Positions 1 to 64,000 of a stretch of DNA of 64,000 bases are shown in pieces. A model generated the notes under the pieces. It saw nothing but the letters and a program-made list of their open reading frames with translations. It did no database searches and was not told the DNA's origin. Made by a program: the position numbers and the translations under genes. The stretch's first letter is position 1, and each line of letters opens with the position of its first letter. Source of the DNA: Limnomonas spitsbergensis. Lineage: Eukaryota; Chlorophyta; Chlorophyceae; Chlamydomonadales. The stretch is taken from contig JAYJMM010000017.1 in the NCBI GenBank assembly GCA_037349105.1, forward strand, positions 1,054,001-1,118,000, written 5' to 3'.

Positions 1-376
1 CCTCTAGCCAACACCTATCACCTAACCCCCCCCCCCCTGCTTCCACTTGGAAAAGTAAATCTAGCCAGAACCTACTCCCCCCCCCCCCCCTGCTTCCACT
101 TGGCACAGTCCTCACCTTGGACAGACGTCTCAGCAGGCCGTTGCAAGACCTCTAGCCAACACCTATCACCTAACCCCCCCCCCCCTGCTTCCAATTGACA
201 CAGCACGCCTAGCTATCACCTAACCCCCCCCCCTGCTTCCAATTGACACAGCACGCCTAGCTATCACCTAACCCCCCCCCCCTGCTTCCAATTGACACAG
301 CACGCCTAGCTATCACCTACCCCCCCCCCCCCTCCACCCACACACACACCCTGCTCCCACTTGGCACAGTCCTCAC
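1..376 (-). repeat. THOC1 intron: C-run repeats and a second copy of the exon 5 donor edge
   Basis: About 50-bp units (Tyr-rich tract, long C runs, 'acctatcacctaac') recur five times. At 107-153 there is a nearly exact copy of the exon 5 3' end plus its GTGAGG donor (compare 367-413). On the sense strand the copy reads into the same CNGLLRRLSK codons followed by a functional-looking donor. Confidence 0.85.
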
Positions 377-3300
377 CTTGGACAGACGTCTCAGCAGGCC
401 GTTGCAAGACCTCAGTATGGCTAGCTGTGCTGGGTGGGATGTGGCAGCCTTGGGGACTATGGGCTTGTCCGAGGCGACGGCTGCAGCGGCTGCGGTGGCG
501 GCAGCCAGACGAGCCGCTCGGGACTCGCTGCTGAGGAACTGCGAGGGATCGGAGGATGGAAGAGGAGGGTGAAAAAACGATGCAGTATATTTGAGGGTGC
601 CTCAGGTCAAATTCAGCTACATACCTCAGGGTGAACTTACATACATAAAAATAAGGTGCCGTGCATCACTTACCGTGGATTCGATTCGCCATCCCTCGGA
701 TATGGAACAACGATTTATTTCAGGCTGAAGCTACCGGCAAATAATCGACAAAACAAAATCCTAATTCTGACTGAATCCTAATTCTGACTGAAAACTGGCA
801 TCGACAATCGAGAATTAGAGAATTCATGGATCCCTCGACCCCAAGCAATGAAAATGTATGAGGGAAGGCAAAGCAAATCTACAGACCAAGGTGAATGTAT
901 CCCCAGCACTTCTTTTTCCGGCTACGAGGCTACGCTCGGTGGGCCGTCACCCCACTGTGAGAAGCCCGGGTGGGAAAAGATCTGTTTGACCAGACGGCGT
1001 CCCACACTGCTCAGCAGGACACTCACAAGCCCAGTGAGAAGCTGAACTGAAGCTGAATGGTTGCTGAGCCGCGAGAACAGAAACGAACTCTTAGTCCTCC
1101 TCCCCAATCCTCACCTCTAGGTCTGCTTCCATGCATGCAAAGACGTCCTGGCAATCGTGAATGGTTCCAACTTCCAGCAAGTCCTCCAGCAGCTTGCAGT
1201 ACCCTGCCAGATCCATCATACGCGGGCCCGGAGGAGCACCTAGGGGGGGGCAGAGGCAAGGGATGTGCAGGAGGGCATCCAACAGGGAGTAAAGGACTAA
1301 TGGGCGTAGAGGACACACATCCAGCAGCTTGCAGTACCCTGCCAGATCCATCATACGCGGGCCCGGAGGGGCACTTAGGGGGGGGCAGAGGCAAGGGAGA
1401 TGCGGGAGGGCATCGAACAGGGAGTAAGGGACTAAGGGGCGGATAGACACACATCCAGCAGCTTGCAGTACCCTGCCAGGTCCATCATACGCGGGCCCGG
1501 AGGAGCACCTAGGAGGGGGCAGAGGCAAGGGAGATGCAGGAGGGCATCGAACAGGGAGTAAGGGAGTAAGGGGCGTAGAGGACACACATCCAGCAGCTTG
1601 CAGTACCCTGCCAGGTCCATCATACGCGGGCCCGGAGGAGCACCTAGGGGGGGGCAGAGGCAAGGGAGATGCGGGAGGGCATCGAACAGGGAGTAAGGGA
1701 GTAAGGGGCGGAGAGGACACACATCCAGCAGCTTGCAGTACCCTGCCAGGTCCATCATACGCGGGCCCGGAGGAGCACCTAGGAGGGGGCAGAGGCAAGG
1801 GAGATGCAGGAGGGCATCGAACAGGGAGTAAGGGACAAAGGGGTGGATAGACACACATCCAGCAGCTTGCAGTACCCTGCCAGATCCATCATACGCGGGC
1901 CCGGAGGAGCACCTAGGGGGAGGCAGAGGCAAGGGAGATGCGGGAGGGCATTGAACAGGGAGTAAGGGAGTAAGGGGCGTAGAGGACACACATCCAGCAG
2001 CTTGCAGTAACCTGCCAGATCCATCATACGCGGGCCCGGAGGAGCAATTAGGGGGGGGCAGAGGCAAGGGAGATGCGGGAGGGCATCGAACAGGGAGTAA
2101 GGGACTATGGGGCGTAGAGGACACACATCCAGCAGCTTGCAGTACCCTGCCAGATCCATCATACGCGGGCCCGGAGGGACGCCTAGGGAAGGGCAGAGGA
2201 CGGTAGAGGGCTAGCTGACAGGGAGTTAGGGGCAGAGAGGACGTATATCTAGCAGCTTGCAAAAGCCTCCCAGGTCGGTCCTGCCCCAATCTGAAGGGGC
2301 AATTAGGGGGGCAGGGGGCAGGGGGACAAAGGGCCATGGGACCATGCCGCGGGGCAGAAAGGGGGTGCAAGTAGCCTTTATTTATTTATTTCGGCTACAA
2401 GGCCACCATCAGCAGGCCGTCCCGTAGCCGTCAGAGGCCCCATTGGGACCAAACCACAGGGCAGAGAGGGAGTGCAAGTAGCTCATGCATGCAGCTGTAA
2501 TGAAGGGATACAATCACCCGGGATGGATCGCAAATGCATGCATAGAAGCCGTATTCATGAAGATGCGTGTATCAACGTATGCATAAAGGCCATATGCCAG
2601 GGCGGCCTGCCGAAAGTGGACTTGAAGCCGGGGGGGGGGGAACTGGCTGTGCTCATGAAGATGCATTTGTCAACATGTGCACATAGGCTGTGCTACAGCA
2701 GCTTCATGTGCGGCATGTCAAACGCGTGATCCAAGCACATGTCCGTAACACGCGTTTGATCAGCGCACGAGCTCGTTGCATGCACATGTCACCAGGAGTA
2801 AATCAGGACAAAGGGGTGGGACGCACCCACTGCATGCTCCCCCAGGGAAGCCTGAGCCATCCATTTGACCATGTTCGTCAAACGGGTATGATACCGGTAA
2901 GTGCACATGTTCCTTGCATGTACATGTCACCAGGAGTAAATCAGGACAAAGGGGTGGGACGCACCCACAGCATGCTCCCCCAGGGAAGCCTGTGCCATCC
3001 ATTTGACCATGTTCGTCAAACGGGTATGATACCGGTAAGTGCACATGTTCCTTGCATGTACATGTCACCAGGAGTAAATCAGGACCAAGGAGTGGGACGC
3101 ACCCACTGCATGCTCCCCCAGGGAAGCCTGAGCCATCCATTTGACCATGTCCAGGAAGCGCTGCAAGTCAGACTGCTGCTGCTGCTGCCCCCCTCGTGCG
3201 CGGTACTGCATGATGGGTGTGCCGGTAGCAACGGCTTGGCTGGCTGTGTGAACCAGCACGAGCCTCAAGACATCCTCCAGCAGCGCTTTGTCGGCTTCGA

Positions 3301-6986: not shown

Positions 6987-7031
<45 letters not shown>

Positions 7032-15300: not shown

Positions 15301-18300
15301 TCACCAGCTGTGACCGGGCCCGCTCGCTCTCCTCCACCTGGAGAGCGGCCTCGCGAGCGCTGCCGGACCTCAGCGCCTGCTCGCGGGACATGCCAGCCAG
15401 CTGCTCCTGCAGCGCTGTGATGGCCTCCAAGTAGCGCTCCTCAGCCTCCTGAGAGTGGTTTCATGGTCCAGGGGCACGGACAGGGTTTAGGGTTTAGGGA
15501 CGTCAGCAGGGTTCAGGGCCAGCTCGGCCAGCTGCTCCTGCAGCACAGCGATGGCCTCCATGTGGTGCTCCTCCGCCTCCTGAAAGCGGTTTCATGGTCC
15601 AGGTGTGTCAGCAGGGCTCATGGTTCAGGACTGTCAGCATGGCTCAGGGGCACGGCAAACAGCCACGCCGTGGCCTGCCTCTGCCCCCTGAAACCGGGTT
15701 CATGGTTCAGGGGCACGGACAGGGTTCAGGGTTTAGGGACGTCGGCAAGGTTCAGGGCCAGCTCGGCCAGCTGATACTGCGGCACCGACATAGCCTCCGT
15801 GTTGAGCTCCTCCACCTCCTGGAAGAGGAGTCATGATTCAGGTGCACCAACAAGGTTTAGGGTTCAGGGAACATGACAGGGTTTTAAGTTAAGGATTGTC
15901 ACAGGGCACAGGGCCAGCTGCTGCAGCAATGCTACAGCCAAGTTGTGACAGGCTCTGCCTCCTCAATCTGGGTTCAGGGCATAGACAGGCTTCAGGGTTT
16001 AGGGGTAACCCACATTTTAGGGTTCAGGGGTATAGATAGGCTTCAGGGTTCAGGGGCATAAGCAAATTTCAGGATTCAGGGATCAGGGGCATAGACAGGG
16101 TTCAGGAGCATAGACGGGCTTCAAGGTTCAGGGGAATCGGCGTTGCGTCCCACTGATGGGGGTTAGGAGCTTGTCCTGGTTTACTATATATGCACACGGG
16201 GGTCCCTGGCCAGCCATGGCAGTGCACATGAGGGCGCTGCACTCACCTACAACTGGCGCTGCGCTTCTAAGGGCGCCGGGCCCAGGCCTCCAACACAGGC
16301 GATGTGTGAGCAGCAGCCATGCTGACATCAAGTGAGGGACTTACCTGCAGCTGGCGCTGTGTCTCTAGGGCACTGCTTGAGGTCTCCAGCCCATGCTTGC
16401 CGTCAATCTTATCAAAGGTGGGCGTGCAAGGGGCCCTGGTTATGTGTGCAAAGCGGCAAAATCGGCAGCATTTCAGGGACACACCTGCAGCTGGCGCTGT
16501 GTCTCTAGGGCACTGCTTGAGACCTCCAACGCAAGCTTGGCTTCGCTCTCCTCGGCCAGCTGTCGGTGCAGCATCACCTTGACCACCTCAGCCTTCTCAG
16601 CTGTCAGGGGGGAGAGGGGGGTAAATGTGCTGGAGGGGCAGGGAGTCAGGGTGACAGAGAGCTGTCGGTGCAGCATCACCTTGACCACCTCAGCCATTTC
16701 AGCTGTCAGAGGGGAGAGGGGCAGAACAGTGATCTACAGCGTGGTTCAGCCACGCTTCAGCTACATCGTTCCTTCGGCCAGTATTGCATTGTCAGCAGGT
16801 CAGGGGAGAGAGGGAAGGAAAGGAGGGGTGTGTGTGGGTTGAGGGAGCCACAGTGCGGGGTGCTTGGGTTAGTTCCCCATTTGCCCAGTGGTGGCCACCC
16901 AGCTGCCTGCTGCTTGGGTTTGTGGTCGGCCTAGTGGCCCAGTGGCGCAGTGGTGGCCACCCAGCCACCTGCGAAGGTGGTCTGGTTCCTACTTTCATAG
17001 AGAGTAGCAAATGGGCAAGGCACACATTCAGCCACAGAACGCCGCCCTCAACCTCAGGATGCTACAGGCACCTCAGCCACAACCCCAAGCTTGCGATAAG
17101 CCATGAGCACTCTTTGGGAGTTATGCTTGTCGCCGCCCCCCATGCCTTGTGCATGAGAGGGTCGTTCCTCGACATGACACGACACAACATGTGCATGAGA
17201 GGGCCATGCCCTGTGCATGAGAGGGCTGGTACGCAAAAACGAGCAAAGGGCTCTCAAGTTGCAAACATCAGACGTATGTGACTTAGTACTGCATGGGCTC
17301 CGCTCGCATTAAACGTCTAAACCCTTAACCCCTGACCCTAAACGAGCAAAGGGCACTCAAGACGCATTCGAATTCATACTGCATGCTAAACCCTAAAACC
17401 CTTAACCCTAAAATCCCTGAATATCAGACACAACCAACTTTATGCTGCATGGGCTCCGCTCGCACCAAAAGTTTTGCGGCCTTTAATAAATGCGTCCCTT
17501 CCAGAAGTCGGGATTTGGACACACGCATGAGCCCTATGATTACTTTGGCTATCCAAGTTAAGGTACTTTGAAGTAACTGATTTACCGAAACCAAATGCTG
17601 GTTCACTGTATGTTACATAATGAAATGGCCTGCACGTTATTTGATGAGCCATGATGCCCTACACCTTAGCCATAATGCCCTACACCTTCGCCATAATGCC
17701 CTACACCTTAGCCGTAATGCCCTACACCTTAGCCATAATGCCCTACACCTTAGCCATAATGCCCTAAACCTTATTAGCCATAATGCCCTACACCTTATTA
17801 GCCATAATGCCCTACACCTTAGCCATAATGTCCTACACCTTAGCCATAATGCCCTACACCTTAGCCATAATGCCCTACACCTTAGCCATAATGCCCTACA
17901 CCTCAGCCACACCTTCAATGCTCAGCCGCCGGACTTCCTCGAGGGCTTCAGCCAGCTGCTCCTTGACCCTCTCAGCCTTCTCAGCTGTCAAGGAGAAATA
18001 GAGAGGGGTGAATGTGTTGGCGGGGCAGGGAGTCAGAGGGGGGGTGGGGCAGCCAATGGTGCAGTATCACACTCAACACCTCTGCCTTATGAGCTGTAAT
18101 AGGGAGAGAGAGGGGTGGATGTGCTGATGGGGCAAGGAGCCAAGGGGGGGAGGCAGCCAATGGTGCAGTATCACACTCAACACCTCTGCCTTATGAGCTG
18201 TAATAGGGAGAGAGAGGGGTGGATGTGCTGATGGGGCAAGGAGCCAAGGGGGGTGGGGCAGCCAATGGTGCAGTATCACACTCAACACCTCTGCCTTATG

Positions 18301-21300
18301 AGCTGTAATAGGGAGAGAGAGGGGTGGATGTGCTGATGGGGCAAGGAGCCAAGGGGGGGAGGCAGCCAATGGTGCAGTATCACACTCAACACCTCTGCCT
18401 TATGAGCTGTAATAGGGAGAGAGAGGGGTGGATGTGCTGATGGGGCAAGGAGCCAAGGGAGGGTGGGGGCAGCCAATGGTGCAGTATCACACTCAACACC
18501 TCTGCCTTATGAGCTGTAATAGGGAGAGAGAGGGGTGGATGTGCTGATGGGGCAAGGAGCCAAGGGGGGTGGGGCAGCCAATGGTGCAGTATCACACTCA
18601 ACACCTCTGCCTTATGAGCTGTAATAGGGAGAGAGAGGGGTGGATGTGCTGATGGGGCAAGGAGCCAAGGGGGGGAGGCAGCCAATGGTGCAGTATCACA
18701 CTCAACACCTCTGCCTTATGAGCTGTAATAGGGAGAGAGAGGGGTGGATGTGCTGATGGGGCAAGGAGCCAAGGGAGGGTGGGGGCAGCCAATGGTGCAG
18801 TATCACACTCAACACCTCTGCCTTATGAGCTGTAATAGGGAGAGAGGGGGGTGGATGTGCTGATGGGACAAGGAGCCAAGGGGGGGGGTGGGGCAGCCAA
18901 TGGTGCAGTATCACACTCAACACCTCTGCCTTATGAGCTGTAATAGGGAGAGAGGGGGGTGGATGTGCTGATGGGGCAAGGAGCCAAGGGGGGGGGGAGG
19001 CAGCCAATGGTGCAGTATCACACTCAACACCTCTGCCTTATGAGCTGTAATAGGGAGAGAGAGGGGTGGATGTGCTGATGGGGCAAGGAGCCAAGGGGGG
19101 GAGGCAGCCAATGGTGCAGTATCACACTCAACACCTCTGCCTTATGAGCTGTAATAGGGAGAGAGAGGGGTGGATGTGTTGGAGGGGCAAGGAGCCAAGG
19201 GGGGTGGGGCAGCCAATGGTGCAGTATCACACTCAACACCTCTGCCTTATGAGCTGTAATAGGGAGAGAGAGGGGTGGATGTGCTGATGGGACAAGGAGC
19301 CAAGGGGGGGAGGCAGCCAATGGTGCAGTATCACACTCAACACCTCTGCCTTATGAGCTGTAATAGGGAGAGAGAGGGGTGGATGTGCTGATGGGGCAAG
19401 GAGCCAAGGGGGGGAGGCAGCCAATGGTGCAGTATCACACTCAACACCTCTGCCTTATGAGCTGTAATAGGGAGAGAGAGGGGTGGATGTGCTGATGGGA
19501 CAAGGAGCCAAGGGGGGGAGGCAGCCAATGGTGCAGTATCACACTGAACACCTCTGCCTTATGAGCTGTAATAGGGAGAGAGGGGGGTGGATGTGTTGGA
19601 GGGGCAAGGAGCCAAGGGGGGGAGGCAGCCAATGGTGCAGTATCACACTCAACACCTCTGCCTTATGAGCTGTAATAGGGAGAGAGGGGGGTGAATGTGC
19701 TGATGGGGCAAGGAGCCAAGGGGGGGTGGGCAGCCAATGGTGCAGTATCACACTCAACACCTCTGCCTTATGAGCTGTAATAGGGAGAGAGAGGGGTGGA
19801 TGTGCTGATGGGGCAAGGAGCCAAGGGGGGGAGGCAGCCAATGGTGCAGTATCACACTCAACACCTCTGCCTTATGAGCTGTAATAGGGAGAGAGAGGGG
19901 TGGATGTGCTGATGGGGCAAGGAGCCAAGGGGGGGAGGCAGCCAATGGTGCAGTATCACACTCAACACCTCTGCCTTATGAGCTGTAATAGGGAGAGAGA
20001 GGGGTGAATGTGCTGATGGGGCAAGGAGCCAAGGGGGGGAGGCAGCCAATGGTGCAGTATCACACTCAACACCTCTGCCTTATGAGCTGTAATAGGGAGA
20101 GAGAGGGGTGGATGTGCTGATGGGGCAAGGAGCCAAGGGGGGGAGGCAGCCAATGGTGCAGTATCACACTCAACACCTCTGCCTTATGAGCTGTAATAGG
20201 GAGAGAGAGGGGTGAATGTGCTGATGGGGCAAGGAGCCAAGGGAGGGTGGGGGCAGCCAATGGTGCAGTATCACACTCAACACCTCTGCCTTATGAGCTG
20301 CAATAGGGAGAGAGAGGGGTGGATGTGCTGATGGGGCAAGGAGCCAAGGGGGGGAGGCAGCCAATGGTGCAGTATCACACTCAACACCTCTGCCTTATGA
20401 GCTGTAATAGGGAGAGAGAGGGGTGGATGTGCTGATGGGGCAAGGAGCCAAGGGGGGGAGGCAGCCAATGGTGCAGTATCACACTGAACACCTCTGCCTT
20501 ATGAGCTGTAATAGGGAGAGAGAGGGGTGAATGTGCTGATGGGGCAAGGAGCCAAGGGGGGTGGGGCAGCCAATGGTGCAGTATCACACTCAACACCTCT
20601 GCCTTATGAGCTGTAATAGGGAGAGAGATGGGTGGATGTGCTGATGGGGCAAGGAGCCAAGGGGGGGAGGCAGCCAATGGTGCAGTATCACACTCAACAC
20701 CTCTGCCTTATGAGCTGTAATAGGGAGAGAGGGGGGTGAATGTGCTGATGGGGCAAGGAGCCAAGGGAGGGTGGGGGCAGCCAATGGTGCAGTATCACAC
20801 TCAACACCTCTGCCTTATGAGCTGTAATAGGGAGAGAGAGGGGTGGATGTGCTGATGGGGCAAGGAGCCAAGGGAGGGTGGGGGCAGCCAATGGTGCAGT
20901 ATCACACTCAACACCTCTGCCTTATGAGCTGTAATAGGGAGAGAGGGGGGTGGATGTGCTGATGGGGCAAGGAGCCAAGGGAGGGTGGGGGCAGCCAATG
21001 GTGCAGTATCACACTCAACACCTCTGCCTTATGAGCTGTAATAGGGAGAGAGAGGGGTGGATGTGCTGATGGGGCAAGGAGCCAAGGGAGGGTGGGGGCA
21101 GCCAATGGTGCAGTATCACACTCAACACCTCTGCCTTATGAGCTGTAATAGGGAGAGAGAGGGGTGAATGTGCTGATGGGGCAAGGAGCCAAGGGGGGGA
21201 GGCAGCCAATGGTGCAGTATCACACTCAACACCTCTGCCTTATGAGCTGTAATAGGGAGAGAGGGGGGTGGATGTGTTGGAGGGGCAAGGAGCCAAGGGG

Positions 21301-27864: not shown

Positions 27865-27903
<39 letters not shown>

Positions 27904-30719: not shown

Positions 30720-30752
<33 letters not shown>

Positions 30753-44507: not shown

Positions 44508-44630
44508 AGAGGAGGAGGATGAGGGGGCAGAGGAGGCGCGTCAGCGGGCCAAGGATGACCGCCAGGATGACAGCGAAAGACGGGGCTGAGGTAACTCAGC
44601 GCTGCGGCCGTGTGGCAGGTGAAGAGAAGG
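44508..44630 (+). pseudogene. Tandem copy of the TAP46 last-exon 3' part
   Basis: About 115 bp directly after the TGA stop repeats 44394-44507 at over 90% identity. In the same reading register the codon for the Trp of RGWGN is TGA in the copy, so an extension could not be translated through it. It therefore lies in the 3' UTR. The opposite interpretation (this copy is the real end and the first is a duplicate) gives a protein ending ...SERRG without the conserved GWGN tail, which is less likely. Confidence 0.75.
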
Positions 44631-46268
44631 AGAGGGAGCAGTTGCCGCGATGGTGGTGGAGTAGCTGCGTTTAAGCTTGCCTGACAGGATGGCGGCTCCG
44701 TGTGAAGGATGTGCCCGCAAGGTGCTTGGTGGGTCCATCCAATCAGTTGTGTTTGTACTGCTGTTGCCGGGAAATTTGTTTGTGATGCGCATGTGTGACC
44801 TAGGCATTGTTATTTTAGTGGATTACAGCTACATATAATTCAGTTGCATCTTGGCCTTCGACTGGGGACTCCTAGTGCAACATTCCCGGCTGCTTACAAT
44901 GTTGGAGCTATGGAAGTGCACATGTCTACATCAGTCATGTACGAAACTTAGCTTTCGGACGTGTGGGGTTTCATTGTTAGATGTGGACAGTCAATCAAGC
45001 GCCATCTGATCCCTACTCCACAGATTCTGTCACACTTCCCACTCCATACTTTGACAGTTTATGACTTTACACCTCCATGCTTTAACAGTTATGTACTGCA
45101 CAGTAGGTGCAACTCCTGGTGTCCTTGTGACCAATTGTGGCACCACACAATGGATAACGCTTTAGTATGGTTAACTTAGAGAGGCGCCTGATACTCACAA
45201 TTGGAGTACTGCTTCATACTTTGTACAGCAGCTACAAAAGTACAGCACGCTGGAAAGTAACTCAACACCGTACAGTTAGCAAGACAGCTGCTGGTTAGGC
45301 TGAACTGGGCTGCTTGTCTAGAGGGGCACTGCCCCCTCTTGTTCACTATTTTTGGCTAGAAGCCAAGTGGGCGCTGAGATACAGCATGGGATTCATCTTC
45401 ATGATTCATCTTCATGTGATCTGGCTGAGGCTCGCTTGTTACTTGCTTATGCTATAACTGCTTTATCACAGATCTAGACTAGACTGGCCTGTTGTGAAAA
45501 GGGTCTGGATGGTCATATAGCGAGACGGTACTTCTTGACACATGCGAGCATACCCTTTTCAGGGAACAGTAAAAATGCTATTGGACTGTCGAGGAAAAGG
45601 TCCCGGCAGGCCCTAATTTACCATGTACGACAAAACATGCTTCGGCGCAGCCTGGAAAGTCATACTGCGGGGCTTCTACTTAAGACTCAGTGACTGGAAC
45701 ACGGGGACTCCGTCACTGAAACTGCGGAATAGACGGTTATGTCGCGTAAACGGATATATACTGTGACACAACTTGCCTCATTGGCGGTAATCATAGTAGT
45801 TTATATCATGGCGGATCCATTAACATCAGTCAATCACAGGCTTTGACGAGTGTATTTTCTGATACATCACTGCATTTACCATTGTTGGGGCCTGTTGGTC
45901 AGTTCATTGTTTCCCCCGAAGGTTCGTTGGCACGAAAGCTTCATGAAATCCCGACAGCTGCAGGTCGAATGCCGAAACTACGTGCACAGTTTGTGATACC
46001 AGGATCAACGAATATTGATGGCATTTAGCACGCGTTACTCCGGTGATGCGGGTCTTGCTGTCGGTAGTTGGTCGGCGGGTTGGTCGGGCATGCGAGATAG
46101 CGAGCCCAACTGACACGCATGCCGGTTCTGACCGCTCACGCACGGAGTTCCTTCAGAGTTTCTTGTCCTGACGTGACCGTCACACATTTCTGCAAGTGCA
46201 TTGACTGCATTCACGTGCAGCACATTCGACCTTGTCCGCCTTTCCAAAACGAAACGGCGAGACAGAAG
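44631..46268. other. Intergenic region downstream of TAP46
   Basis: Single-copy, AT-richer, free of arrays. It contains part of an inverted-repeat element-like word ('tgttattttagtggattacagctac', 44812). No coding signal recognised. It should contain the TAP46 polyadenylation site and the promoter of the next gene. Confidence 0.55.
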
Positions 46269-53056: not shown

Positions 53057-56000
53057 ATGTCGCCTAAAGACGTTGATGCCATATGGGCGCAACTGAAAGC
53101 CAAGACCGGTACTGTCTCGGATGCCTCGAAGGTTGACAAGATGATGTACCTCTTCAACAATGGTCTTGGACAGAAGGACCTGTCAGTTTCAAATAAGCCG
53201 AGCGGTGCAACCTCGGAGACCAGCGTTGTGTCGGGAGGGAAAATATTTGCAGAGTCGAAGACCGCGACGGAGCCGAGCGCAGCAAGCGCACTGCATGACG
53301 TCACGACTACAGCGGAGGCGCTCCAGGGGTCAACATCAGAGGTTGCTTCCACCCTCGGGGTATCGCTGCCTCGGCATATCGCGGCATTGCAGGATCCGTC
53401 TCAGCTAAACAGGAAGCGTGCACTACAGCAAATTCAGGTACTCCCCTCCCCTCCTGGCAGCTCCACACGGCTCTGCACCCTCTTGCGACTGTTCCCCCCT
53501 TACCTCAAATCAGCTCTTGCACCTATCTACGTATATTGTTGCTTCTGCCAGCCCTCGGACAGTCTTTCTGGCGATTGTCTGCTTTCAACAATATACATTG
53601 ACTTCATGCATGGGCTCCATGCATGGACTGCAAGTGTGGACTACATGCATAGACACCATGAATGAACTACTTTCATTAACTGCTTGCATAGATAACGTGT
53701 ATGGGCCACATGTATGGACGACATGCATGTATTACTTAAGGACTGCATGCATGGACTGCTTACATGGACTGCATGCATAGACTGCATGTATGAACTGCAT
53801 GCATGGACTGCTTGTATGGATTGCATGCATGGACTGCTTGCATGGACTGCACGTATAGACTGCTTGTATGGACTGCATGCATGGACTGCTTGCATGGACT
53901 GCTTGCATGGACTGCATGCATGGACTGCATGCATGGACTACATATATGGACTGCATACATAGACCATATAGACCACAGAGATGGATGACATGCATGGCCA
54001 GCCAGTGCTTTCTTTTTCTGGACAATGCTGAAGCAGGGAGATGGACGCCTGTATCCGTTGCTACATCGCCTGGTCGAAAATATTGACCTGACGCCATGAG
54101 CTTTGATGGCTAAACTGAGTCATGTTGCATGGTGGCGGAGCTGATGCATGACTGCATGATGCAGCTGCTCCATCAGTCCATCATACAGAAATTAGCGTCA
54201 GCCGTTCTGCTTGGCTTCACCTTGCACTCCAAAAATGACAGATGCTGCAAGCTGTGTGCCGCAGCTATTTGTCAGTCATAGGGCTCGCTCGCTGTATACA
54301 ATGTTCGAGCCCTATGCTCCTATTCAGCTACATAATGGCCTACGACCGTGGGGGCCTATTGCAGCAAGCTCTGCTGCTGGGCCCCCCGTAAATGTGGTCT
54401 GGTGCATGCTTTAGTGGACATCGCCCGTACATGCAGCCGTGTGACTGCTCGGGTTGCACCCGCTTATACTTCTGTTCCAGTACTAATTTACATCAACTTC
54501 AGACAATCATAAGAAAGGAACAGTGCATGCAATGTTCAGTTCACTGGACCCCCCCTGGCTACTAGCTGGAGTTATAAAAGCTGAGTGGAATCTGCATCCG
54601 TGTCAGTTTTGGGTGCTGAAACGATTTCCGCCCTACCACGGCATGCACTGTGACACAGCAACATGCTTCATCATGCTCAAGCATCCTTCCTCCTTGGTCA
54701 GGCAGGGGGGAGTAAGAAATTTCAATTACGGTACCCGACGAATGACTTGAATTAAAATCGAAAGAGGTTAAATTCCTAGTGAATTCGGTACTCGGTTGAT
54801 GCAGAAAACTTTCCTTTCCCCTGCTGGCCCTCTCAACCTCCCCCACCTTTTACGCTGCCCCCTGTCTCACAAACCTTAAACCCTAAACCCTAAGTCTTCC
54901 ACCTTTTACGCTGTCCCCAATCTCACAAACCCTGAACCCTAAACCCTACACCCCCCACCTCAAACGCCGTCCCATATCTCCCAAGGCCACAGGCATGTCT
55001 TATGATCCTCCAGATGGCAGCCCTAGACCCTAAACCCTTAACCCTAAACCCTAAACACTGAACCCTAAACCCTGAACCTGTTTCCCCGCAAGCGTTGTAG
55101 CTGATCCCTGCCTGTGCCCCAGACCTTGAACATGCTTCGCCGCAGACGCTGCGTCTGAGCCTGGGCGGCGCCTGCAGGTATACTGTAAACCCTTTTCCAT
55201 AAACGCTTGACTGCTGAACCTAAAGCCTTGTCCTCGCAGGTGCTGCCGCTGAGCCCGGTTGGCGCCTGAGGTTAACGTCTTAAGCACCGACCATATTTTC
55301 CCTCAGGCGCTGTTGCAGGCGTGTCTCGGCGTCACCATGGCCTTGAAACCTGAAGGGTGCTTCACTGCAGGCTCTGCTGTTGATGCCAGGCGGTGCCTGG
55401 GATAAACCCTGAACAATAAATCTTTAACTCTTAAACCCTTTAACCTTACACCCTCAAACAGGTGCCTGGGATAAAACCCTAAACCCTTGAAGTCTTTAAC
55501 TCTGAAACTCTTTCACCCTTAAACCCTTGACTCTTAAACCCCTAAGCCCTTAAACCCTCAAACCCTTAAACCCTTACACCTTTGAACCGTTAACTCCTAA
55601 ACCCTCAAACTCATGAACTCTGACCAATCCACCCATTTCCCGCAGACGCTGTTGCTGATACCGGGCTGTGCCTGGGATAAAACCTAAAGCCTGAGCCCTA
55701 AACCCTAAACCCTGAACCCTAAACCTTGAACCCTGAACCTTGAACCCTGAACCCTGAACCCCTTAACGATCCACCCATTTCCTGCAGGCGCTGCTGCTGA
55801 GCCCAGGTGGAGCTGCAGCGTCTGATGCGGACCTCCTCCAAGACTGGCTTGAGGGTGGGAAGCTTGGCAAGGCGTTGCTCAGGAGGTGGGTCGGGAGTCT
55901 GGTCGTGTTTGTGGAGTTTGTGTGTGTGTGCCGGCTCTGCAAACTGGCTTGAGGGTGGGAAGCTAGGCAAGGCGCTGCTCAGGTGGATTGGGAGTTTAGT

Positions 56001-59000
56001 TGTGTTTGTGGAAGGGGCGTATGGGCTTGTGTGTGTGGGTGTGGGTGTGTGCCGGCACCGCAACCGGGCTAAAGGGTGGAAAGCTAGAAAAGGCGAGAGG
56101 CTTTGCCTGTGTGTGTGTGTGTGTGCTCCACTACCTTTTGCTTTACGGCCTGCCTCTCAAAATCTGTTGTCGTTGTTCAAAGGCAGCTGAGCATTGTTAA
56201 TTTTATAGCGCTTCAGCTATCATCCAGGTGTGTTGCGGCCTATGGCGGGTGGGTGGGGGCCTGAGGCCCTGCTGCTTGGGGTTCCACTACCTTTTGCTTT
56301 ACGGCCTGCCTCTCGAAATCTTTTGTTCAAGGACAGGTAGACATTGTTAATTGTATAGCGCTCCAGCTATAGTCCGGATGCCTTGCGGCCCATGGCGGGT
56401 GTGGGGGGGGGGGCCTGAAGCCCTAAACCCTGCTGCTTCGGGTCGATATTTCGTCCCATGCGGTCCAGTGGTGGCCCCGCGGTGGCGCCCGGAAGAGGGT
56501 CTGTTGCTGACCTACACTAGAATAAACAATGAAGCTGAGGTGACTACCGGTAGCTTGATGGCTGGGGGGGAGCTAGTGCCCAAAGCCCCAAAGCCTTGCA
56601 GTTGAATTCAATGTTGCCCCATGGGCCCAGTCGTGGCCACCCGGTGGCACCCGGAAGGTATTTTGGTGCCTGCCCATACTTACATACACAAGGTTGCTGA
56701 AGTGACTGGCTTGATGTATCCCCCTCCGGCACTCTGTTGCTGGTAAAGGAAACTTAGGTAATAAGTTTAGTGCGGTACATGCGGTGCTTATTTTTCGTGA
56801 CTCAGCTAACAGTCAGTTACACTCCGGCCGCTGGTCGGAGGAGGCCCCATTCGTGGCCAGCCTTGCTGCTTTGGTCACCCGTCGCAGGCCGGCCCAGGTT
56901 TGGTCCGAAATGGGCCTCTGGCAGCCGCTGGTCGGCCAGCTTAAGTTGAATTTGGAGCTGAGAAAAGAAATTCTGCTCATAAGGCTTAGGCACGAAGGCG
57001 ATCTCCCTAGCCTTCCTAGCCGTCCAGGGCTATCGTGCGTCCGGCGGCTTATCATGGCCTCATGGGTCAAGCTTACGCTCCCCCCCAGAGACTGAGTATG
57101 TACCCCCCTCCCCCCCCTACTTATCTTGCCTGCTGGCAAAGTAGAGCTGAGTCACTGGGTGGATCAGGCTCAGCCCTTCCTAGACGTCCAGGGCTATCGT
57201 GCGCCCAACGGCTTATCATGGGTCAAGCTTACGCTCCTCCCCCCCTCAGATACTAGATTTGCGCCTCCCCTCCTCCCCCCCTTCCCTGACTCATCCTGCC
57301 TGCTGGCAAAGTGACGCATGGGATATCAGGCCTTCCTAGCCGTCCAGGGCTATCGTGTGTCCGGTTGGGCTTATCATGGGTCCAATTTACGCTCCCACAA
57401 TCCTCCTGCCTGCTGGCAAAGTGTAGCTTGGTGCATTAGGCTCAGCCCTTCCTAGCCGTCAAGGGCTATCGTGCGTCAGATGGCCCATCATGGAATCACG
57501 AGTCAAACTTGAACTCCCACTGCCCCCAGATGTTGAGTCGATGCTCCTGCAATCCTCCTGCCTGCTGGCAAAGTGACGCATGGCGGTATGGGACATAAAG
57601 CCCTCCTAGTCGTCCTGGGCTATGGTGCGTCCGGCGACTGACCATGGGTCAAGCTTACGCTCCCCTCACCCCAGATACTGAGTTCTTGCCCCCATCCCCC
57701 CCCCCCCCAACTCATCCTGCCTGCTGGCAAAGTGGCTGCACCCCACATTCTGCCTGTAGGTATAATTACCCAGCTCCCTCCCCCTCCCTGAGCTTGAGTC
57801 CTTGCCCCCCCCCCCTCTGCCCTCACATACTGCATGTATGTAGAACAACCCCCCTAGGCTTCAGTGCTTGCCCCACCCTCCTCTGCCCCCACATACTGCA
57901 TGCTGGTATGACAAACCAGCTCCCTCCCCCCCCCTGATCTTGAGCTCTTGTCCCCCCCCCCCACCTCTGCCCCCACATACTGCCTGTAGGTATGACGACC
58001 CAGCAGAAGCTTGCAGGGAGCAGGCAGTGGGCACGCTGAGCGCCTTGATGCAGGTGGGTGCTGGATAACGGGTGGGGACTGGATAACAGCCTAGCAGGTA
58101 TGGACTGGATGGCATGTGTGGACTGGATGATAGCCTGGTAGGTATGGACTAGATGACAAATGTGGAGGTGAACATGTGTGGACTGGAGAACATGTGTGGA
58201 CAGGATAACAGCGTAGCAGGTGGGGAGTGGGTGGTTGGGACAACTCTATTGAGCCCTTGCATTTCGAGCCCTCATGCTGCACAGTGCCCCCTGCCTAGGC
58301 CACGCTGTACTGCACTTTTCCCGCATGCATACACTATCAGACAGGTGCTGCAGCAACCCAAACTCCCTGTCCAGCGCCCGGTGCGTCCCCACTCCCTATC
58401 CCCCGCTTGCCCCTTTCCCCCTTTCCCCGCCCACCCTTCCACCCGCTCCTTCCGCTCTTTCCCCCCCCCTCCTTTTTTCCCTCCCCCCTCTTTGTTCTCT
58501 TCTCCCCCCCCCCCTTTCCACTGCCCCCTGCTCTATTTCCCCCCTGCTCCACCTTCCCCTGCTTCATTCCCCCCTGCCCCCTGCCCCCTGCCCCACCCTC
58601 CCCTGCTCCCTCCCCCCTGCCCCCCCATCCCCCCCTCCTGCTCCCCCCCTCCCCCACTCCCTCCCCCCCTGCTCCACTCTCCCTTGCTCCATCCCCCTCC
58701 TGTCCCATCGCCCTCCTGCCCCCCCCTCCCCCCCTCCCCTGCTCCCTCCCCCCCCTGCCCCAGGCTGCTCCGCACTCTGTCCTAGCCCTTATGCCATATG
58801 TGATCCCTATCCTGGAAGAAAGGCTGGCCTGGGCCACGGCGGGTCTCGGATCTGCCGGATCTGCCGCATCTGGACCTGGATCTGGATCTGGTGCCTCAGT
58901 TGGGTCTCGGAGCCCTTGCGAGCCCAGTGAGGAGGTCAGGCTGTTGCTGGCTGGCCAGCTGCTGCTACTGCTGAAGCTGGCAGCCAAGGCGGTGGCGGCG

Positions 59001-62000
59001 TATGCGGCAGAGGTTGTGCAGGTGGGCGTGCTGGCTGTGTTGATTTTTATGCGCAACAGGCCACCTTTGGCAGGCCGCTGCGCAGCCGTCGCTGGGCGTA
59101 TGTGCATGAAACCTTGATCGGCCTATGCGGCGGGCTTTCTTCAGGAGATGTCCACGGCCCTAAGCCGTGTTGTAGCGGAATCTGTGTTGTAGCTGCAGCT
59201 GGCAGCCAAGGTGGTGGCGACGTAAGCGGCTGATGTTGTGCAGGTGGGCGTGCTGGCTAGCTGGAAGTGTTGCTTTTAATGTGCAGCAGGCCACCTTTGG
59301 ATAACCTTCGGATTACCTTTGGATCACCTTTGGATAACCTTTGGATTACCTTCGGATTACCTTTGGATCACCTTTGGATCACCTTTGGATTACCTTCGGA
59401 TTACCTTTGGATAACCTTTGGATAACCTTTGGATTACCTTTGGATAACCTTCGGATTACCTTTGGATAACCTTCGGATTACCTTTGGATAACCTTTGGAT
59501 AACCTTCGGATTACCTTTGGATAACCTTCGGATTACCTTTGGATAACCTTTGGATAACCTTTGGATTACCTTTGGATAACCTTCGGATTACCTTTGGATA
59601 ACCTTCGGATTACCTTTGGATTACCTTTGGATTACCTTTGGATAACCTTTGGATTACCTTTGGATTACCTTCGGATTACCTTTGGATTACCTTCGGATTA
59701 CCTTTGGATTACCTTCGGATAACCTTTGGATTACCTTTGGATTACCTTCGGATTACCTTTGGATTACCTTCGGATTACCTTTGGATTACCTTTGGATTAC
59801 CTTTGGATAACCTTTGGATAACCTTCGGATAACCTTTGGATTACCTTCGGATTACCTTCGGATTACCTTTGGATTACCTTTGGATAACCTTTGGATAACC
59901 TTCGGATAACCTTTGGATTACCTTCGGATTACCTTCGGATTACCTTTGGATTACCTTCGGATTACCTTTGGATTACCTTTGGATAACCTTTGGATTACCT
60001 TTGGATTACCTTTGGATAACCTTCGGATAACCTTCGGATAACCTTTGGATTACCTTTGGATTACCTTCGGATTACCTTTGGATTACCTTTGGATTACCTT
60101 TGGATAACCTTTGGATAACCTTTGGATTACCTTTGGATTACCTTTGGATTACCTTTGGATAACCTTTGGATTACCTTTGGATTACCTTCGGATTACCTTT
60201 GGATTACCTTTGGATTACCTTTGGATAACCTTTGGATAACCTTCGGATAACCTTTGGATTACCTTCGGATTACCTTCGGATTACCTTTGGATTACCTTCG
60301 GATTACCTTTGGATTACCTTTGGATAACCTTTGGATTACCTTGGATTACCTTTGGATTACCTTTGGATAACCTTCGGATAACCTTTGGATTACCTTTGGA
60401 TTACCTTCGGATTACCTTTGGATTACCTTTGGATTACCTTTGGATAACCTTTGGATTACCTTTGGATAACCTTTGGATTACCTTCGGATTACCTTTGGAT
60501 TACCTTTGGATTACCTTTGGATTACCTTCGGATTACCTTTGGATTACCTTCGGATTACCTTTGGATTACCTTTGGATTACCTTTGGATAACCTTTGGATA
60601 ACCTTCGGATAACCTTTGGATTACCTTCGGATTACCTTTGGATTACCTTTGGATTACCTTTGGATAACCTTTGGATAACCTTCGGATAACCTTTGGATTA
60701 CCTTCGGATTACCTTCGGATTACCTTTGGATAACCTTTGGATTACCTTTGGATTACCTTTGGATAACCTTTGGATAACCTTCGGATAACCTTTGGATTAC
60801 CTTTGGATTACCTTCGGATTACCTTTGGATTACCTTTGGATTACCTTTGGATAACCTTTCGATAACCTTTGGATTACCTTTGGATTACCTTTGGATAACC
60901 TTCGGATAACCTTTGGATTACCTTTGGATTACCTTCGGATTACCTTTGGATTACCTTTGGATTACCTTTGGATAACCTTTGGATAACCTTCGGATAACCT
61001 TTGGATTACCTTCGGATTACCTTCGGATTACCTTTGGATTACCTTCGGATTACCTTTGGATTACCTTTGGATTACCTTTGGATTACCTTTGGATAACCTT
61101 TGGATAACCTTCGGATAACCTTTGGATTACCTTTGGATTACCTTCGGATTACCTTTGGATTACCTTTGGATTACCTTTGGATAACCTTTGGATTACCTTT
61201 GGATTACCTTTGGATTACCTTTGGATAACCTTTGGATTACCTTTGGATTACCTTCGGATTACCTTTGGATTACCTTTGGATTACCTTTGGATAACCTTTG
61301 GATAACCTTCGGATAACCTTTGGATTACCTTCGGATTACCTTTGGATTACCTTTGGATTATCTTGGATTACCTTTGGATTACCTTTGGATTACCTTTGGA
61401 TAACCTTTGGATTACCTTTGGATTACCTTCGGATTACCTTTGGATTACCTTTGGATTACCTTTGGATAACCTTTGGATAACCTTCGGATAACCTTTGGAT
61501 TACCTTCGGATTACCTTCGGATTACCTTTGGATTACCTTTGGATTACCTTTGGATTACCTTTGGATTACCTTTGGATAACCTTTGGATAACCTTCGGATT
61601 ACCTTCGGATTACCTTTGGATAACCTTTGGATTACCTTCGGATTACCTTTGGATTACCTTTGGATTACCTTTGGATTACCTTTGGATTACCTTTGGATAA
61701 CCTTTGGATAACCTTTGTTTCTTGTCTCCGGATTCCCTCTGTTTTGCTCTGCCTGGCCCCTCCACAAAAGACTGTGGAAGAATGGTGGATGCGTTAAGTT
61801 TGTAATGAAAACCTTTGGCAGGCCGCTGGGCAGCCGTCACTGGGCTGTTGTGGATGGAACTTTGACTGGCCTAGGCTGCGGGCTTTCTGTACAAGATTTC
61901 TACGGCCGCGGGCCGTGTTGTAGCTGAAACATAGCTGAAATCTGGCTGAATCACCTGAGGGCTAGGCAAGAAATAAGTGCAAGGTGGTCCATGACACAAG

Positions 62001-64000
62001 GGCTAAGCTGTTTATTACCGGAGGGCTAGGTTGTACAAATCGTTCATACATATTTCATATAGGTTCTACAAAGTGTTCATACATATTTCGTATAAGTTGT
62101 ACAAAGTGTTCATACTTGTTTCGTATTTATACGGCTTCAACCAGCACTAGCCTAGGTGGCCTCAATGTGCTTTACCCCAAGGGCCTGAAATCTCATCTCA
62201 AAACACGAAAGGACTGATCCCTAAACTCAAAACACGAAAGGCCTGAGCTCTATGCGCAAAATCCTTAACTCAAAACCATCAAAGCCTGAACCCTAAACTC
62301 TTTACCCCTGAAGGCCTGAACCTATACCCTAAACCCTGAGCTTTGCTCTCCTGCTGTTTTCCTGTTTCTCTCCTGTTTCTCACTTGTTGCTCTCCTGCTG
62401 CTCTCCTTTTCTCACTTGTTGCTTTCCTGTTGCTCTCCTGTTGCTCTCCTATCTCTCACCTGCTGCCCACTTGTTGCTCTCCTGCTGCTCTCCTGTATCT
62501 CTCCTGCTGCCCTCCTGTTTCTCACTTATTGCTCTCCTGCTGCTCTCCTGCTGCTCCCCTGTTTCTCACCTGCTGCTCACCTGCTGTGCTCTTGCTGCTC
62601 TTCTACTTCTCTCCTGTTGCTCTCCTGCTGATCACCTGCTGCTCACACTCATGTTGTACAGATCATCAAGGTGCTGTGTGACGACCCCTTTTACGAAATT
62701 AACGTGGAGGCCTGCTGGGCGGTGCTGGCCCTAAATGGTAAGGAGTCGGATCGGATCTAATTCAGATCCCGGATCGGATTCAATTCAGATCCCGGATCGT
62801 ATCTGGAAGTGGGATCCATGGGATGATCCTGGTTTTGATGGCTGGCATGTTCCCTGCCAGACCACAATGGATGTCCTCGGTATAGCTTGCCTGTACTGTG
62901 TGCTTATACGGTTTTACTTTTTTGAATGAGTGCCCTTTTTCGAACCAGGTACTGGTTCCTGTTAATTATGAACATGATGAACTGCATGTTAATGAAGCTA
63001 ATTATGTTCTTACTGTTTGGCCATTTCGACCAACGGCCCTTGGGTGACAGGGTGGGTTTGGACACGTGGGCGCGGATAATCAGGTGTGGATAAGCAGGTA
63101 TGGATAAGTAGGTGTGGATAGGTAAGTGTGGACACGAGGGTGTCGATACCTGGGTGTGGACACGAAAGCGTGGATAAGTGGGTGTGGCTAGGCACTGTAA
63201 GATGAACAAAAGCAGCAGCACAATGCAGCAGAACACTGTACCCCTTTCACAAGGGGGGGGGGGGGGGGGTCACTGAGTCATATTATTCTCCTATGCATTT
63301 GTAAGTGTAGCTCCACTGCGCTGGGTACAAGCAAGGATGTTTCTAGCAACGTCAGGATGCCGAGGCCACCCCAAACCCTCTTTCTGCACTCCATACAACC
63401 CTAAACCCTAAGCCCTCTTTCGGTACTCCATAGAACCCTAAACCCTAAACCCTCTTTCTGTACTCCATATAACCCTTAACCCTCTTTCTGCACTCTATAG
63501 AACCCTAAACCTAAACCCTCTATCTGCACTCCATAGAACCCTAAACCCTAAACCCTCTTTCTGCACTCCATAGAACCCTAAACTCTAAACCCTATTTCTG
63601 CACTCCATAGAACTCTACACCCTAAACCCTTATTCTGCACTCCATATAACCCTAAACCCTGAACCCTCTTTCTGCACTCCACAGAAGCCTAAGCCCTCTT
63701 TCTGCACTCCATAGAAACCTAAACCCTAAGCCCTCTTTCTGCACTCCATAGAACCCTAAACCTAAACCCTCTATCTGCACTCCATAGAACCCTAAACCCT
63801 CTTTCTGCACTTCATAGAACCCTGAACCCTCTTTCTGCACTCCTTACAACCCTTCCCGCTGAGCTCGTTTGCTCCAATGTGTGCTGGGTAGATATGAGGG
63901 GCGATGGATGGCCAGTTGATACAGTAACGGCGCGGATGTGGCTGCAGTCCTCAAGCTTCATCCCTGCCAGTGCGCTGGGAAAGCGACCGAAGCCTAGACC
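53057..64000 (+). CDS. DNAAF5: DNAAF5/HEATR2 (dynein axonemal assembly factor 5), 5' part, 6 exons, runs off right edge
   Basis: DNAAF5 is a cytoplasmic HEAT-repeat protein needed to preassemble axonemal dynein arms. Exons: 53057-53437, 55788-55885, 57990-58053, 58345-58380, 58764-59021 and 62662-62737; phases (0,2,0,0,0,1) agree. Matches to the animal protein in order: QLNRKRALQQIQ (RRALEAL), ALLRRYDDPAEACREQAVG (LLRCLSDPAEGCRALAV), MPYVIPILEERL, CEPSEEVRLLLAGQLLLLL (EPSEELRLALV) and KVLCDDPFYEINVEACW (LLDPFPAVRRESC). These are the first HEAT repeats; about 304 residues of roughly 850 are present. An in-frame ATG at 52973 is an alternative start. A 36-nt exon (VLQQPKLPVQRP) is supported by phase and position. 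No exon after 62737 was recognised, so the 3' boundary given is the window edge. The call implies a species with motile flagella. Confidence 0.85.
53590..53975 (+). repeat. 15-bp minisatellite in DNAAF5 intron 1
   Basis: About 24 copies of ATGCATGGACTGCTT-like units. The 15-bp period keeps frames open on both strands (MDCMHGLLAWTAC type). ATGCATGGACTGC is built around the ATGCAT palindrome. Confidence 0.9.
54295..54420 (-). mobile_element. Dispersed inverted-repeat element fragment, reverse
   Basis: 'attcagctacataatggcct', 'acgaccgtgggggcctattg' and 'cagcaagctctgctgctggg' match the copy at 14030 almost base for base. Confidence 0.7.
54850..55787 (+). repeat. Copies of the DNAAF5 exon 2 acceptor edge with telomere-like spacers
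   Basis: 'CGCAG/GCGCTGCTGCTGAGCC' variants occur near 55086, 55142, 55237, 55302, 55368 and 55645, before the real acceptor at 55787 (CCTGCAG). Each is followed by aaccctaaaccctgaaccc runs. The copies carry 20-30 bases of exon start. Confidence 0.85.
55886..56130 (+). repeat. Two copies of the DNAAF5 exon 2 donor edge
   Basis: 'ctggcttgagggtgggaagc' with 'aaggcgctgctcaggtgg' recurs at 55940-55987, and in decayed form at 56062-56100, about 100-115 bp apart, with tgtgtgtgtgtg spacers. Confidence 0.85.
56190..56720 (-). mobile_element. Dispersed inverted-repeat elements: complete copy 56342-56531 with flanking partial copies
   Basis: 56342 begins CATTGTTAATTGTATAGCGC and 56531 ends CTACACTAGAATAAACAATG, giving terminal inverted repeats, with the interior in reverse order. 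Partial copies at about 56190-56290 and 56595-56690 share 'ggtggcgcccggaag' and 'tagcgcttcagctatcatcc'. The local block 56150-56340 is a direct duplication ('ccactaccttttgctttacg' twice). Confidence 0.7.
56786..56945 (-). mobile_element. Dispersed inverted-repeat element, reverse orientation
   Basis: 'gactcagctaacagtcagtt', 'actccggccgctggtcgg', 'aggccggcccaggtttggtc' and 'cagccgctggtcggcc', parallel to the copies at 9060 and 42226. Confidence 0.65.
57000..57989 (+). repeat. DNAAF5 intron 2 repeats, ending in copies of the exon 3 acceptor edge
   Basis: Six units of 120-150 bp share 'cgtccagggctatcgtgcg', 'tcatgggtcaagcttacgct' and 'cctgcctgctggcaaag'. The last few convert to 'ctgcctgtaggtata' (57748), 'tactgcatgctggtatgac' (57893) and finally the real site CTGCCTGTAG/GTATGACGAC at 57989. 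The acceptor-like word is thus the end of each unit. Confidence 0.8.
58381..58763 (+). repeat. C/T-rich low-complexity tract before exon 5 acceptor
   Basis: Some 380 bp almost purely C and T with 'cccctgctccatcccc' words, running up to the acceptor CCCCAG at 58763. Resembles an extended pyrimidine tract. Frames through it are Pro/Leu/Ser only. Confidence 0.85.
59022..59296 (+). repeat. Copy of the DNAAF5 exon 5 donor edge carrying an element copy between
   Basis: 59196-59262 repeats 58972-59038 (CTGGCAGCCAAGGCGGTGGC ... GTGCAGGTGGGCGTGCTGG), with a stop (TAAGC) in the copied frame. Between them, 59045-59195, lies a plus-oriented dispersed element (caccttt, aggccgctgcgcagccgtc, ccacggccctaagccgtgtt). 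The duplicated unit thus includes the element start, which recurs at 59281. Confidence 0.85.
59297..61712 (+). repeat. 11-bp minisatellite, about 220 copies, nested in a dispersed element
   Basis: Units GGATTACCTTT, GGATAACCTTT, GGATAACCTTC and GGATTACCTTC. It begins at the 'ggccacctttgg' box of an element copy (59281) and the same box resumes at 61808 as 'aaacctttggcaggccgctg', followed by the rest of the element to about 61950. Unit-type order repeats in blocks of about 300 bp. Confidence 0.95.
61808..61955 (+). mobile_element. 3' part of the dispersed element, after the 11-bp array
   Basis: 'ggcaggccgctgggcagccg', 'actttgactggcctaggctg', 'ctacggccgcgggccgtgtt' and 'gtagctgaaacatagctgaa' in family order. 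Confidence 0.75.
61956..62340 (+). repeat. DNAAF5 intron 5: short repeats
   Basis: Three 34-bp units 'cgttcatacatatttca...aggttctacaa' (62040-62130), then 'ctcaaaacacgaaaggcctg' and 'aaccctaaactc' telomere-like words. No exon. Confidence 0.7.
62341..62655 (+). repeat. CT-rich repeat before exon 6 acceptor
   Basis: About 30 units of 'ttgctctcctgctgctctcc' (9-10 bp core CTCTCCTGCTG), ending at CATGTTGTACAG/ATCATC. A pyrimidine-tract expansion on the sense strand; open frames through it are Leu/Ser/Cys only. Confidence 0.85.
63020..63200 (+). repeat. Imperfect 15-16-bp repeats
   Basis: 'gtgtggataagcaggta', 'tggataagtaggtgtgga' and similar words, about ten copies, DNAAF5 intron 6. Confidence 0.75.
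63360..63860 (+). repeat. 40-bp array with telomere-like core, about 13 copies
   Basis: Unit 'tttctgcactccatagaacc' followed by one to three CCCTAAA motifs. Unit length varies with the number of CCCTAAA motifs. DNAAF5 intron 6. Its position between exons indicates interstitial, not terminal, telomere-like DNA. Confidence 0.9.

What the first reader, a model, noticed from the sequence alone, without database searches (positions are those of the whole stretch)
1..64000. Exon-edge minisatellites: introns filled with tandem copies of neighbouring splice junctions
In four separate genes, on both strands, arrays beside an exon are built from that exon's own edge plus its splice site: acceptor-side copies upstream (THOC1 exon 4; coiled-coil exons 9-14 and 16; TAP46 exon 4; DNAAF5 exons 2 and 3) and donor-side copies downstream (THOC1 exons 3 and 5; coiled-coil exons 3, 4, 7, 9 and 16; TAP46 exons 3 and 4; DNAAF5 exons 2 and 5). 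Seen directly: matched exon words, retained AG or GT, stops or divergence in the copied coding part. Inference: a replication, repair or splicing-linked process repeatedly duplicates junctions, and decoy sites may be tolerated or used. I know of no described class with this name; that is a statement of my knowledge, not of a search.
Basis: partly seen in the sequence, partly recalled or inferred. Interest (0 to 1): 0.9.

Follow-up and report, generated by a model that had tools for sequence, protein, structure and literature searches.

The report
Splice-junction copies in algal introns
Introns of this green alga often carry tandem copies of the neighbouring exon edge and its splice site; the pattern is real, matches the 'mirages' known from amphioxus, and is largely accounted for by ordinary local duplication plus selection on exons.

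Summary
Protein-guided spliced alignment gave 21 introns in THOC1, TAP46 and DNAAF5. Local duplicates span (>=15 bp each side) 9 of 21 donors and 8 of 21 acceptors; homology puts the coding exon at the outermost copy. Only 3.35 of 23.7 kb of intronic array DNA has units with an exon edge (a third if two giant THOC1 arrays are set aside). In 42 introns of 11 chaperonin loci on other contigs 10 of 84 junctions are spanned: the feature is genome-wide, this locus a hot spot. Junctions are not duplicated more than intron points (0.40 versus mean 0.54 here; 0.12 versus 0.14 there). Junction-blind duplication-deletion simulations give 0.36-0.47 and 0.12, less (0.20-0.33) when exonic overlap is penalised. 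The same copying occurs at TAP46's stop codon. The class has a name: 'mirages' in amphioxus (PMC3087553). Best reading: mirages from local duplication turnover, decoy sites tolerated; a junction preference of up to about two-fold is not excluded. I found no earlier report for algae.

The parts
2776..3150 (-). THOC1 exon 3 donor-side array: 138-bp unit = 48 bp of exon end plus intron start, 2.7 copies
   Evidence: TRF; junction mapped
1185..2199 (-). THOC1 exon 4 acceptor-side array: 135-bp unit = intron end plus 55 bp of exon start, 7.5 copies
   Evidence: TRF
1..331 (-). THOC1 exon 5 donor side: exon-edge copies 261 and 409 bp downstream of the donor (the second lies in L002); a 148-bp array runs from -121 to 197. 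The 49-bp array at 163-331 contains no exon edge
40457..41747 (+). TAP46 exon 3 donor-side array: 101-bp unit x 12.8, overlapping the exon by 86 bp; 11 copies of the donor mapped, 10 with GT
   Evidence: TRF; tblastn
44396..44632 (+). TAP46 last exon: CDS end with stop codon copied downstream (115-bp unit x 2.1); no splice site involved
   Evidence: TRF; tblastn (44334-44504 and copy 44506-44619)
55640..55788 (+). DNAAF5 exon 2 acceptor with degenerate upstream copy (offset -142)
55843..56010 (+). DNAAF5 exon 2 donor (55885) and copy 97 bp downstream
57849..58004 (+). DNAAF5 exon 3 acceptor-side array, 84-bp unit, 15 bp of exon
58970..59293 (+). DNAAF5 exon 4 donor (59021) and copy 222 bp downstream
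18000..25336 (-). Coiled-coil gene: 104-bp x 69.8 array whose unit matches acceptor plus exon start at 16565-16721 (72.5% identity)
   Evidence: TRF
37855..38256 (+). TAP46 intron 1 array (106 bp x 3.8) with no exon edge: example of a purely intronic array
39622..40004 (+). TAP46 intron 2 array (143 bp x 2.7) with no exon edge

Best explanation
These are 'mirages': minisatellites born by local tandem duplication of segments (mostly 40-150 bp) at positions blind to the junction, with deletion and point mutation. Shown: the copies, the outermost functional member by homology, their near-absence deeper in exons, and their presence at lower density in other genes. Inferred: selection removes duplications that change the mature mRNA but lets stand those that span an exon edge, because the extra copies fall into the intron (or, at a stop codon, the 3'UTR). 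Exon edges cannot be deleted, so under turnover they act as permanent sources that keep re-seeding the intron. Splicing must choose the first donor or last acceptor, as exon definition would; that step is inference.
For: Spanned junctions 17 of 42 (0.40) against duplicated intron points, mean over introns 0.54, pooled 0.74. Chaperonin set 10 of 84 (0.12) against mean 0.14, pooled 0.25. Coverage is flat from intron to junction and reaches zero 80 bp into exons. Array-level count 7 observed, 5.8 expected. Junction-blind turnover simulations: 0.36-0.47 spanned at raw 0.53-0.63 with exonic overlap up to 150 bp, 0.43-0.44 at raw 0.57-0.72 with a 90-bp cap, 0.122 at raw 0.16 for shorter introns (10 of 84 then has P 0.58). 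One stop-codon copy in TAP46. CCT-eta paralogues L017/L018 share one acceptor duplication at the same offset (-108), and two others are present in only one paralogue: birth and loss. Same anatomy in amphioxus with regular splicing by RT-PCR.
Against: Against a null that counts each array once, junctions exceed expectation (17 observed, about 10 expected, P 0.004); I did not compute this statistic for simulations. Simulations that penalise exonic overlap span fewer junctions than observed: 60-bp cap 0.20-0.33 (P 0.10 at 0.30), exponential penalty 0.24-0.31 (P 0.013 at 0.24; P values). Without deletion (duplication burst) 0.06-0.07 at raw 0.13-0.15 against 0.12 observed in the chaperonin set (P 0.03-0.07). 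The first duplicated block starts in the last 90 exon bp 38 times and in the first 90 intron bp 8 times; simulations give 1.3-1.6:1 and roughly 2-2.7:1 for window-like settings (read off, whose bins differ); P 0.04-0.13 and 0.04-0.09. The excess is gone in the window set (P 0.92) and weaker in the other (P 0.17) if ends under 20 bp into the exon are moved to the intron side, expectation unchanged. All fits of the full end distribution, uniform or junction-biased, are rejected. GT is kept in 80 of 82 donor copies (13 junctions).
Confidence: 0.65

Rival explanations
1. A junction-linked process (transcription, R-loop, splicing or exon chromatin coupled breakage) seeds duplications preferentially over splice junctions.
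For: Excess over the collapsed null; block-end asymmetry 38:8; models penalising exonic overlap under-predict spanned junctions; the run with about 40% extra junction seeding has the best end-position fit (G 14.8 against 21.9-31.6 for uniform runs), though it is still rejected (P 0.006).
Against: Spanned frequency is reached by junction-blind turnover models; array-level excess not significant; coverage has no peak at the junction; copies also at a stop codon. Strongly biased runs over-predict spanned junctions (0.52-0.58); a weakly biased one does not (0.35). In one search biased runs gave 0.20 but at higher raw duplication (0.21-0.23). In one search biased runs (G 23.2, 25.2) fitted ends no better than 60-bp-cap uniform runs (G 18.5, 19.8, 26.4).
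Confidence: 0.2
2. Decoy sites are used or selected, for example to strengthen splicing or make in-frame isoforms.
For: Nearest-copy offset a multiple of 3 in 10 of 18 window junctions (P 0.043), 7 of 10 donors; GT kept in 80 of 82 donor copies; AG|GTG about 0.98 conserved against 0.85 flanks in the window set.
Against: Frame excess did not replicate: 4 of 11 in the chaperonin set, pooled 14 of 29, P 0.068. AG lost in 11 of 31 acceptor copies. Donor copies come from 13 junctions and one array gives 51 of the 82.
Confidence: 0.1
3. Exon duplication or intron gain in progress (Rogers-type), the copies being nascent or dying exons.
For: Proposed for amphioxus globins and reported for a potato gene.
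Against: The best copies carry 15-87 bp of exon edge and one splice site, not a whole exon; homologous proteins align without extra segments.
Confidence: 0.05

Closest known systems
Amphioxus 'mirages' (Adh3, globins BflGb6 and BflGb9, TnC; similar repeats in PGBD5)
   Same: [quoted passage not shown] PMC3902484 passage)
   Different: Here in a green alga, at 10 of 84 sampled junctions and 17 of 42 in the hot locus, with 51 mapped donor copies at one junction (L020). Copy-number differences between haplotypes and splicing tests exist for amphioxus, not here
[quoted passage not shown] potato RdRp case)
   Same: Tandem duplication spanning an intron/exon structure supplies extra splice sites (PMC4974935 passages)
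   Different: No new intron is seen here; extra sites stay inside an existing intron
Ordinary intronic minisatellites
   Same: Same kind of units and array growth; 14 of 21 arrays with unit >=40 bp contain no exon edge
   Different: A minority extends 15-87 bp into the exon
Introner elements (recalled, not tested)
   Same: Repetitive sequence families associated with introns
   Different: Introners are dispersed copies at many loci; these copies were found beside their own junction (dispersed copies were not searched for)

Membership tests
mirage (amphioxus type) | Tandem repeat unit spans an exon/intron boundary | tested here: met
mirage (amphioxus type) | Both donor and acceptor boundaries can be duplicated | tested here: met
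   10 donor and 8 acceptor junctions with copies in the window set; 3 donors and 7 acceptors spanned in the chaperonin set
mirage (amphioxus type) | Authentic exon at the edge of the cluster, copies intronic | tested here: met
   Homology-supported exons end at the first donor or start at the last acceptor; cDNA not available
mirage (amphioxus type) | Copy number varies between haplotypes | tested here: inconclusive
   No allele compared; paralogue pair L017/L018 differs in copies
mirage (amphioxus type) | Regular splicing is not disturbed | not testable with these tools
   No transcripts available
Rogers-type intron gain | Duplication creates an additional spliced intron | tested here: inconclusive
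   Homologous proteins align without extra segments in the three genes, which speaks against it; cDNA needed
   Not above intron points or junction-blind turnover simulation; above a collapsed null, above overlap-penalised simulations, weakly in block ends

The most novel reading that the evidence does not exclude
On top of junction-blind turnover, duplications are seeded about two-fold more often over splice junctions (transcription- or splicing-coupled breakage), and decoy donors are kept functional, so this alga's introns are continually rebuilt from their own exon edges.
Probability: 0.17. Interest if true: 0.75.

Novelty: new member of a known kind. Interest (0 to 1): 0.5.

Why it matters
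If the density of the 11 sampled chaperonin loci holds genome-wide, roughly one splice junction in eight has decoy copies next to it, in one case 51. That makes a natural experiment on how the spliceosome picks the true site: exon definition predicts the first donor and last acceptor, intron definition the reverse. It also suggests how local tandem-duplication turnover can rebuild introns from exon edges, a route to intron growth and gain, and it warns gene annotators about exon-like fragments in introns.

Tried and rejected
Coverage peak at junctions: not seen. Frame preservation of decoys: suggestive in the window (10 of 18), not replicated (4 of 11), set aside. An early reading of the block-end cluster as strong proof of junction targeting was withdrawn after simulation showed that a uniform process also puts many ends in the exon edge. 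PDB searches with single THOC1 exons gave only chance-level hits. Pfam on ten ORFs of random loci gave nothing above a curated cut-off. DNAAF5 exons beyond exon 11 were left out because alignments disagreed. The coiled-coil gene was left out of all counts. Chaperonin matches on C84, C114, C82, C97 and C102 were listed but not fetched (11 loci used). Papers: PMC7617258, PMC12702839, PMC10400597, PMC3087553, PMC3902484 and PMC4974935 were seen as passages; the rest only in search listings (one search listed 20 of 31).
Full report
What the sequence is. The window lies in a 260-Mb, 124-contig genome at C17:1054001-1118000. Its best TAP46 and THOC1 matches are Chlamydomonas eustigma proteins (47% and 51%), so it is very likely a chlorophycean green alga; the species was not established. 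Tandem repeats cover 43% of the window and 0.08, 0.11, 0.53, 0.20, 0.24 and 0.17 of six 10-kb loci on other contigs, so this locus is repeat-rich even for its genome.

Exons. A spliced protein-to-DNA aligner was written and run with P0001 (TAP46), P0010 (THOC1) and P0006 (DNAAF5); boundaries were refined by hand so that all 21 introns used begin GT or GC and end AG. THOC1 runs off the window to the left and DNAAF5 to the right, so 20 kb was fetched on each side. Used: 4 introns of TAP46, 7 of THOC1, 10 of DNAAF5. Left out: the outer edges of the first and last THOC1 exons found, DNAAF5 exons after exon 11, and the coiled-coil gene.

The observation. Self-alignment of each exon-intron-exon stretch (blastn, word 7, score >=44) shows duplicates spanning the junction by at least 15 bp on each side at 9 of 21 donors and 8 of 21 acceptors. 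At a slightly looser setting 18 of 42 junctions have copies, 43 in all; the best copies hold 15-87 bp of exon. Exon interiors show 27 of 280 points duplicated and none at 80-120 bp inside. The homologous proteins fit the first donor or the last acceptor. So the anatomy described is real. 'Introns filled with' is too strong: of 23.7 kb of intronic array DNA in these introns, 3.35 kb has a unit with at least 10 bp of a flanking exon, or 3.35 of 10.1 kb when the two THOC1 intron-5 arrays are set aside; 7 of 21 arrays with unit >=40 bp contain an exon edge where 5.8 are expected from uniform placement (P 0.34). The 7.3-kb array in the coiled-coil gene, not in these counts, does look edge-derived (72.5%).

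Is it tied to junctions? (1) Random intron points are duplicated at a mean of 0.54 (pooled 0.74), junctions at 0.40. (2) The profile is flat from the intron to the junction (0.48-0.50 at +20 to +80, 0.40 at 0, 0.38 at -20) and reaches zero by -80. (3) If every array is counted once, junctions exceed expectation, 17 against about 10, P 0.004. (4) Seen from the exon, the first duplicated block starts inside the last 90 bp of the exon 25 times and in the first 90 bp of the intron 5 times. Tests 3 and 4 looked like targeting, so I simulated introns under uniform duplication, uniform deletion, mutation and protected exons, and measured them with the same pipeline. With exonic overlap up to 150 bp this gives 0.36-0.47 spanned junctions at 0.53-0.63 duplicated intron (0.50 at 0.63-0.69); with a 90-bp cap 0.43-0.44 at 0.57-0.72. 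With a 60-bp cap it gives 0.20-0.33 and with an exponential penalty on exonic overlap 0.24-0.31; against those, 17 of 42 has P 0.10 (at 0.30) and 0.013 (at 0.24). The reason turnover models reach the observed level is that exon edges cannot be deleted and keep re-seeding the intron (inference from the models). The observed end asymmetry of 25:5 has P 0.04-0.13 against uniform expectations read off, and is gone when ends under 20 bp into the exon are moved to the intron side. No model tried, uniform or junction-biased, fits the full distribution of ends, partly because two introns have no duplicates at all. A modest junction preference therefore remains possible.

Replication away from the window. 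When the genome search answered (nineteen earlier calls to it did not complete), I fetched 11 chaperonin (CCT and Cpn60) loci and built 42 introns with protein segments printed by PDB searches (for L015, L016 and L019 the loci's own translated Pfam matches served as query, so their boundaries rest on splice signals). Duplicates span 3 of 42 donors and 7 of 42 acceptors; mean duplicated intron fraction 0.14 (pooled 0.25); exon interiors 33 of 1570. A junction-blind turnover simulation with shorter introns at raw 0.16 gives 0.122 spanned, the observed value being 0.119. Duplication without deletion gives 0.06-0.07 at raw 0.13-0.15, P 0.03-0.07, so turnover, or some junction preference, is needed. 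Ends are 13:3. One intron (L020:4291-6810) has 51 mapped donor copies, 50 with GT. The CCT-eta paralogues L017 and L018 share one acceptor duplication at the same offset (-108), while L017:4925-5403 and the L018 intron at transcript positions 7106-7434 have acceptor copies that the other paralogue lacks: gain and loss between gene copies whose aligned exon pieces are about 80-90% identical.

A coding edge without splicing. At the end of TAP46 the last exon with its stop codon is copied downstream as a 115-bp repeat. The same filter, extra copies falling into unselected sequence, explains this; a splicing-linked process does not. This is one case.

Are decoys used? Nearest-copy offsets were multiples of 3 in 10 of 18 window junctions (P 0.043) but 4 of 11 in the replication set; pooled 14 of 29, P 0.068. 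GT is kept in 23 of 24 window donor copies and 57 of 58 replication copies, AG in 14 of 19 and 6 of 12. The donor figure comes from 13 junctions and is a hint only. No transcripts were available.

What is known. [quoted passage not shown] echoed for PGBD5, PMC3902484, passage). My searches listed no report of it in green algae; in the passages I saw, two Haematococcus genome papers mention tandem or repetitive DNA but not this. That covers only an open-licence library, and most listed papers were not opened.

Verdict. A real feature of this alga, seen in several genes on several contigs; a new and dense case of a known kind, best explained by local duplication turnover under exon constraint, with a junction preference of up to about two-fold not excluded; useful as a natural test of exon definition.

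Noticed in passing
L017/L018 and L021/L022 (C39/C99, C36/C119); possibly C84/C114: Chaperonin genes occur as pairs on different contigs, aligned pieces about 78-92% identical and introns largely diverged, suggesting an old whole-genome or large segmental duplication, or a hybrid.
   Followed up: partly
copies, recounted: Decoy donors keep GT (80 of 82 copies, 13 junctions) while decoy acceptors often lose AG (20 of 31 kept, 16 junctions); the asymmetry is unexplained.
   Followed up: partly
window -16506 to -5450 (L010/L002): THOC1 intron 5 (14.6 kb) holds an 11-kb array of a 77-bp unit, 143.5 copies; no exon edge was found in its TRF unit.
   Followed up: partly
window 59293-61717: 220.6 copies of an 11-bp unit fill most of DNAAF5 intron 4, starting about 50 bp after a copied exon edge.
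   Followed up: no
window 26579-28846 (-): 756-codon open frame on the minus strand, rich in Gln/Ala/Ser runs with 75-78-bp internal repeats; not identified.
   Followed up: no
L008:10-933 and 1009-1161: On contig C16 an open frame has copies of its start region upstream, several about 102 bp apart, like an acceptor-side array; gene not identified.
   Followed up: partly
L005: Exon pieces of a gene that I take (recalled) for acetamidase/formamidase-like matched PDB 3b9t (E 4e-6); no edge copies were found around three of its candidate exons.
   Followed up: partly
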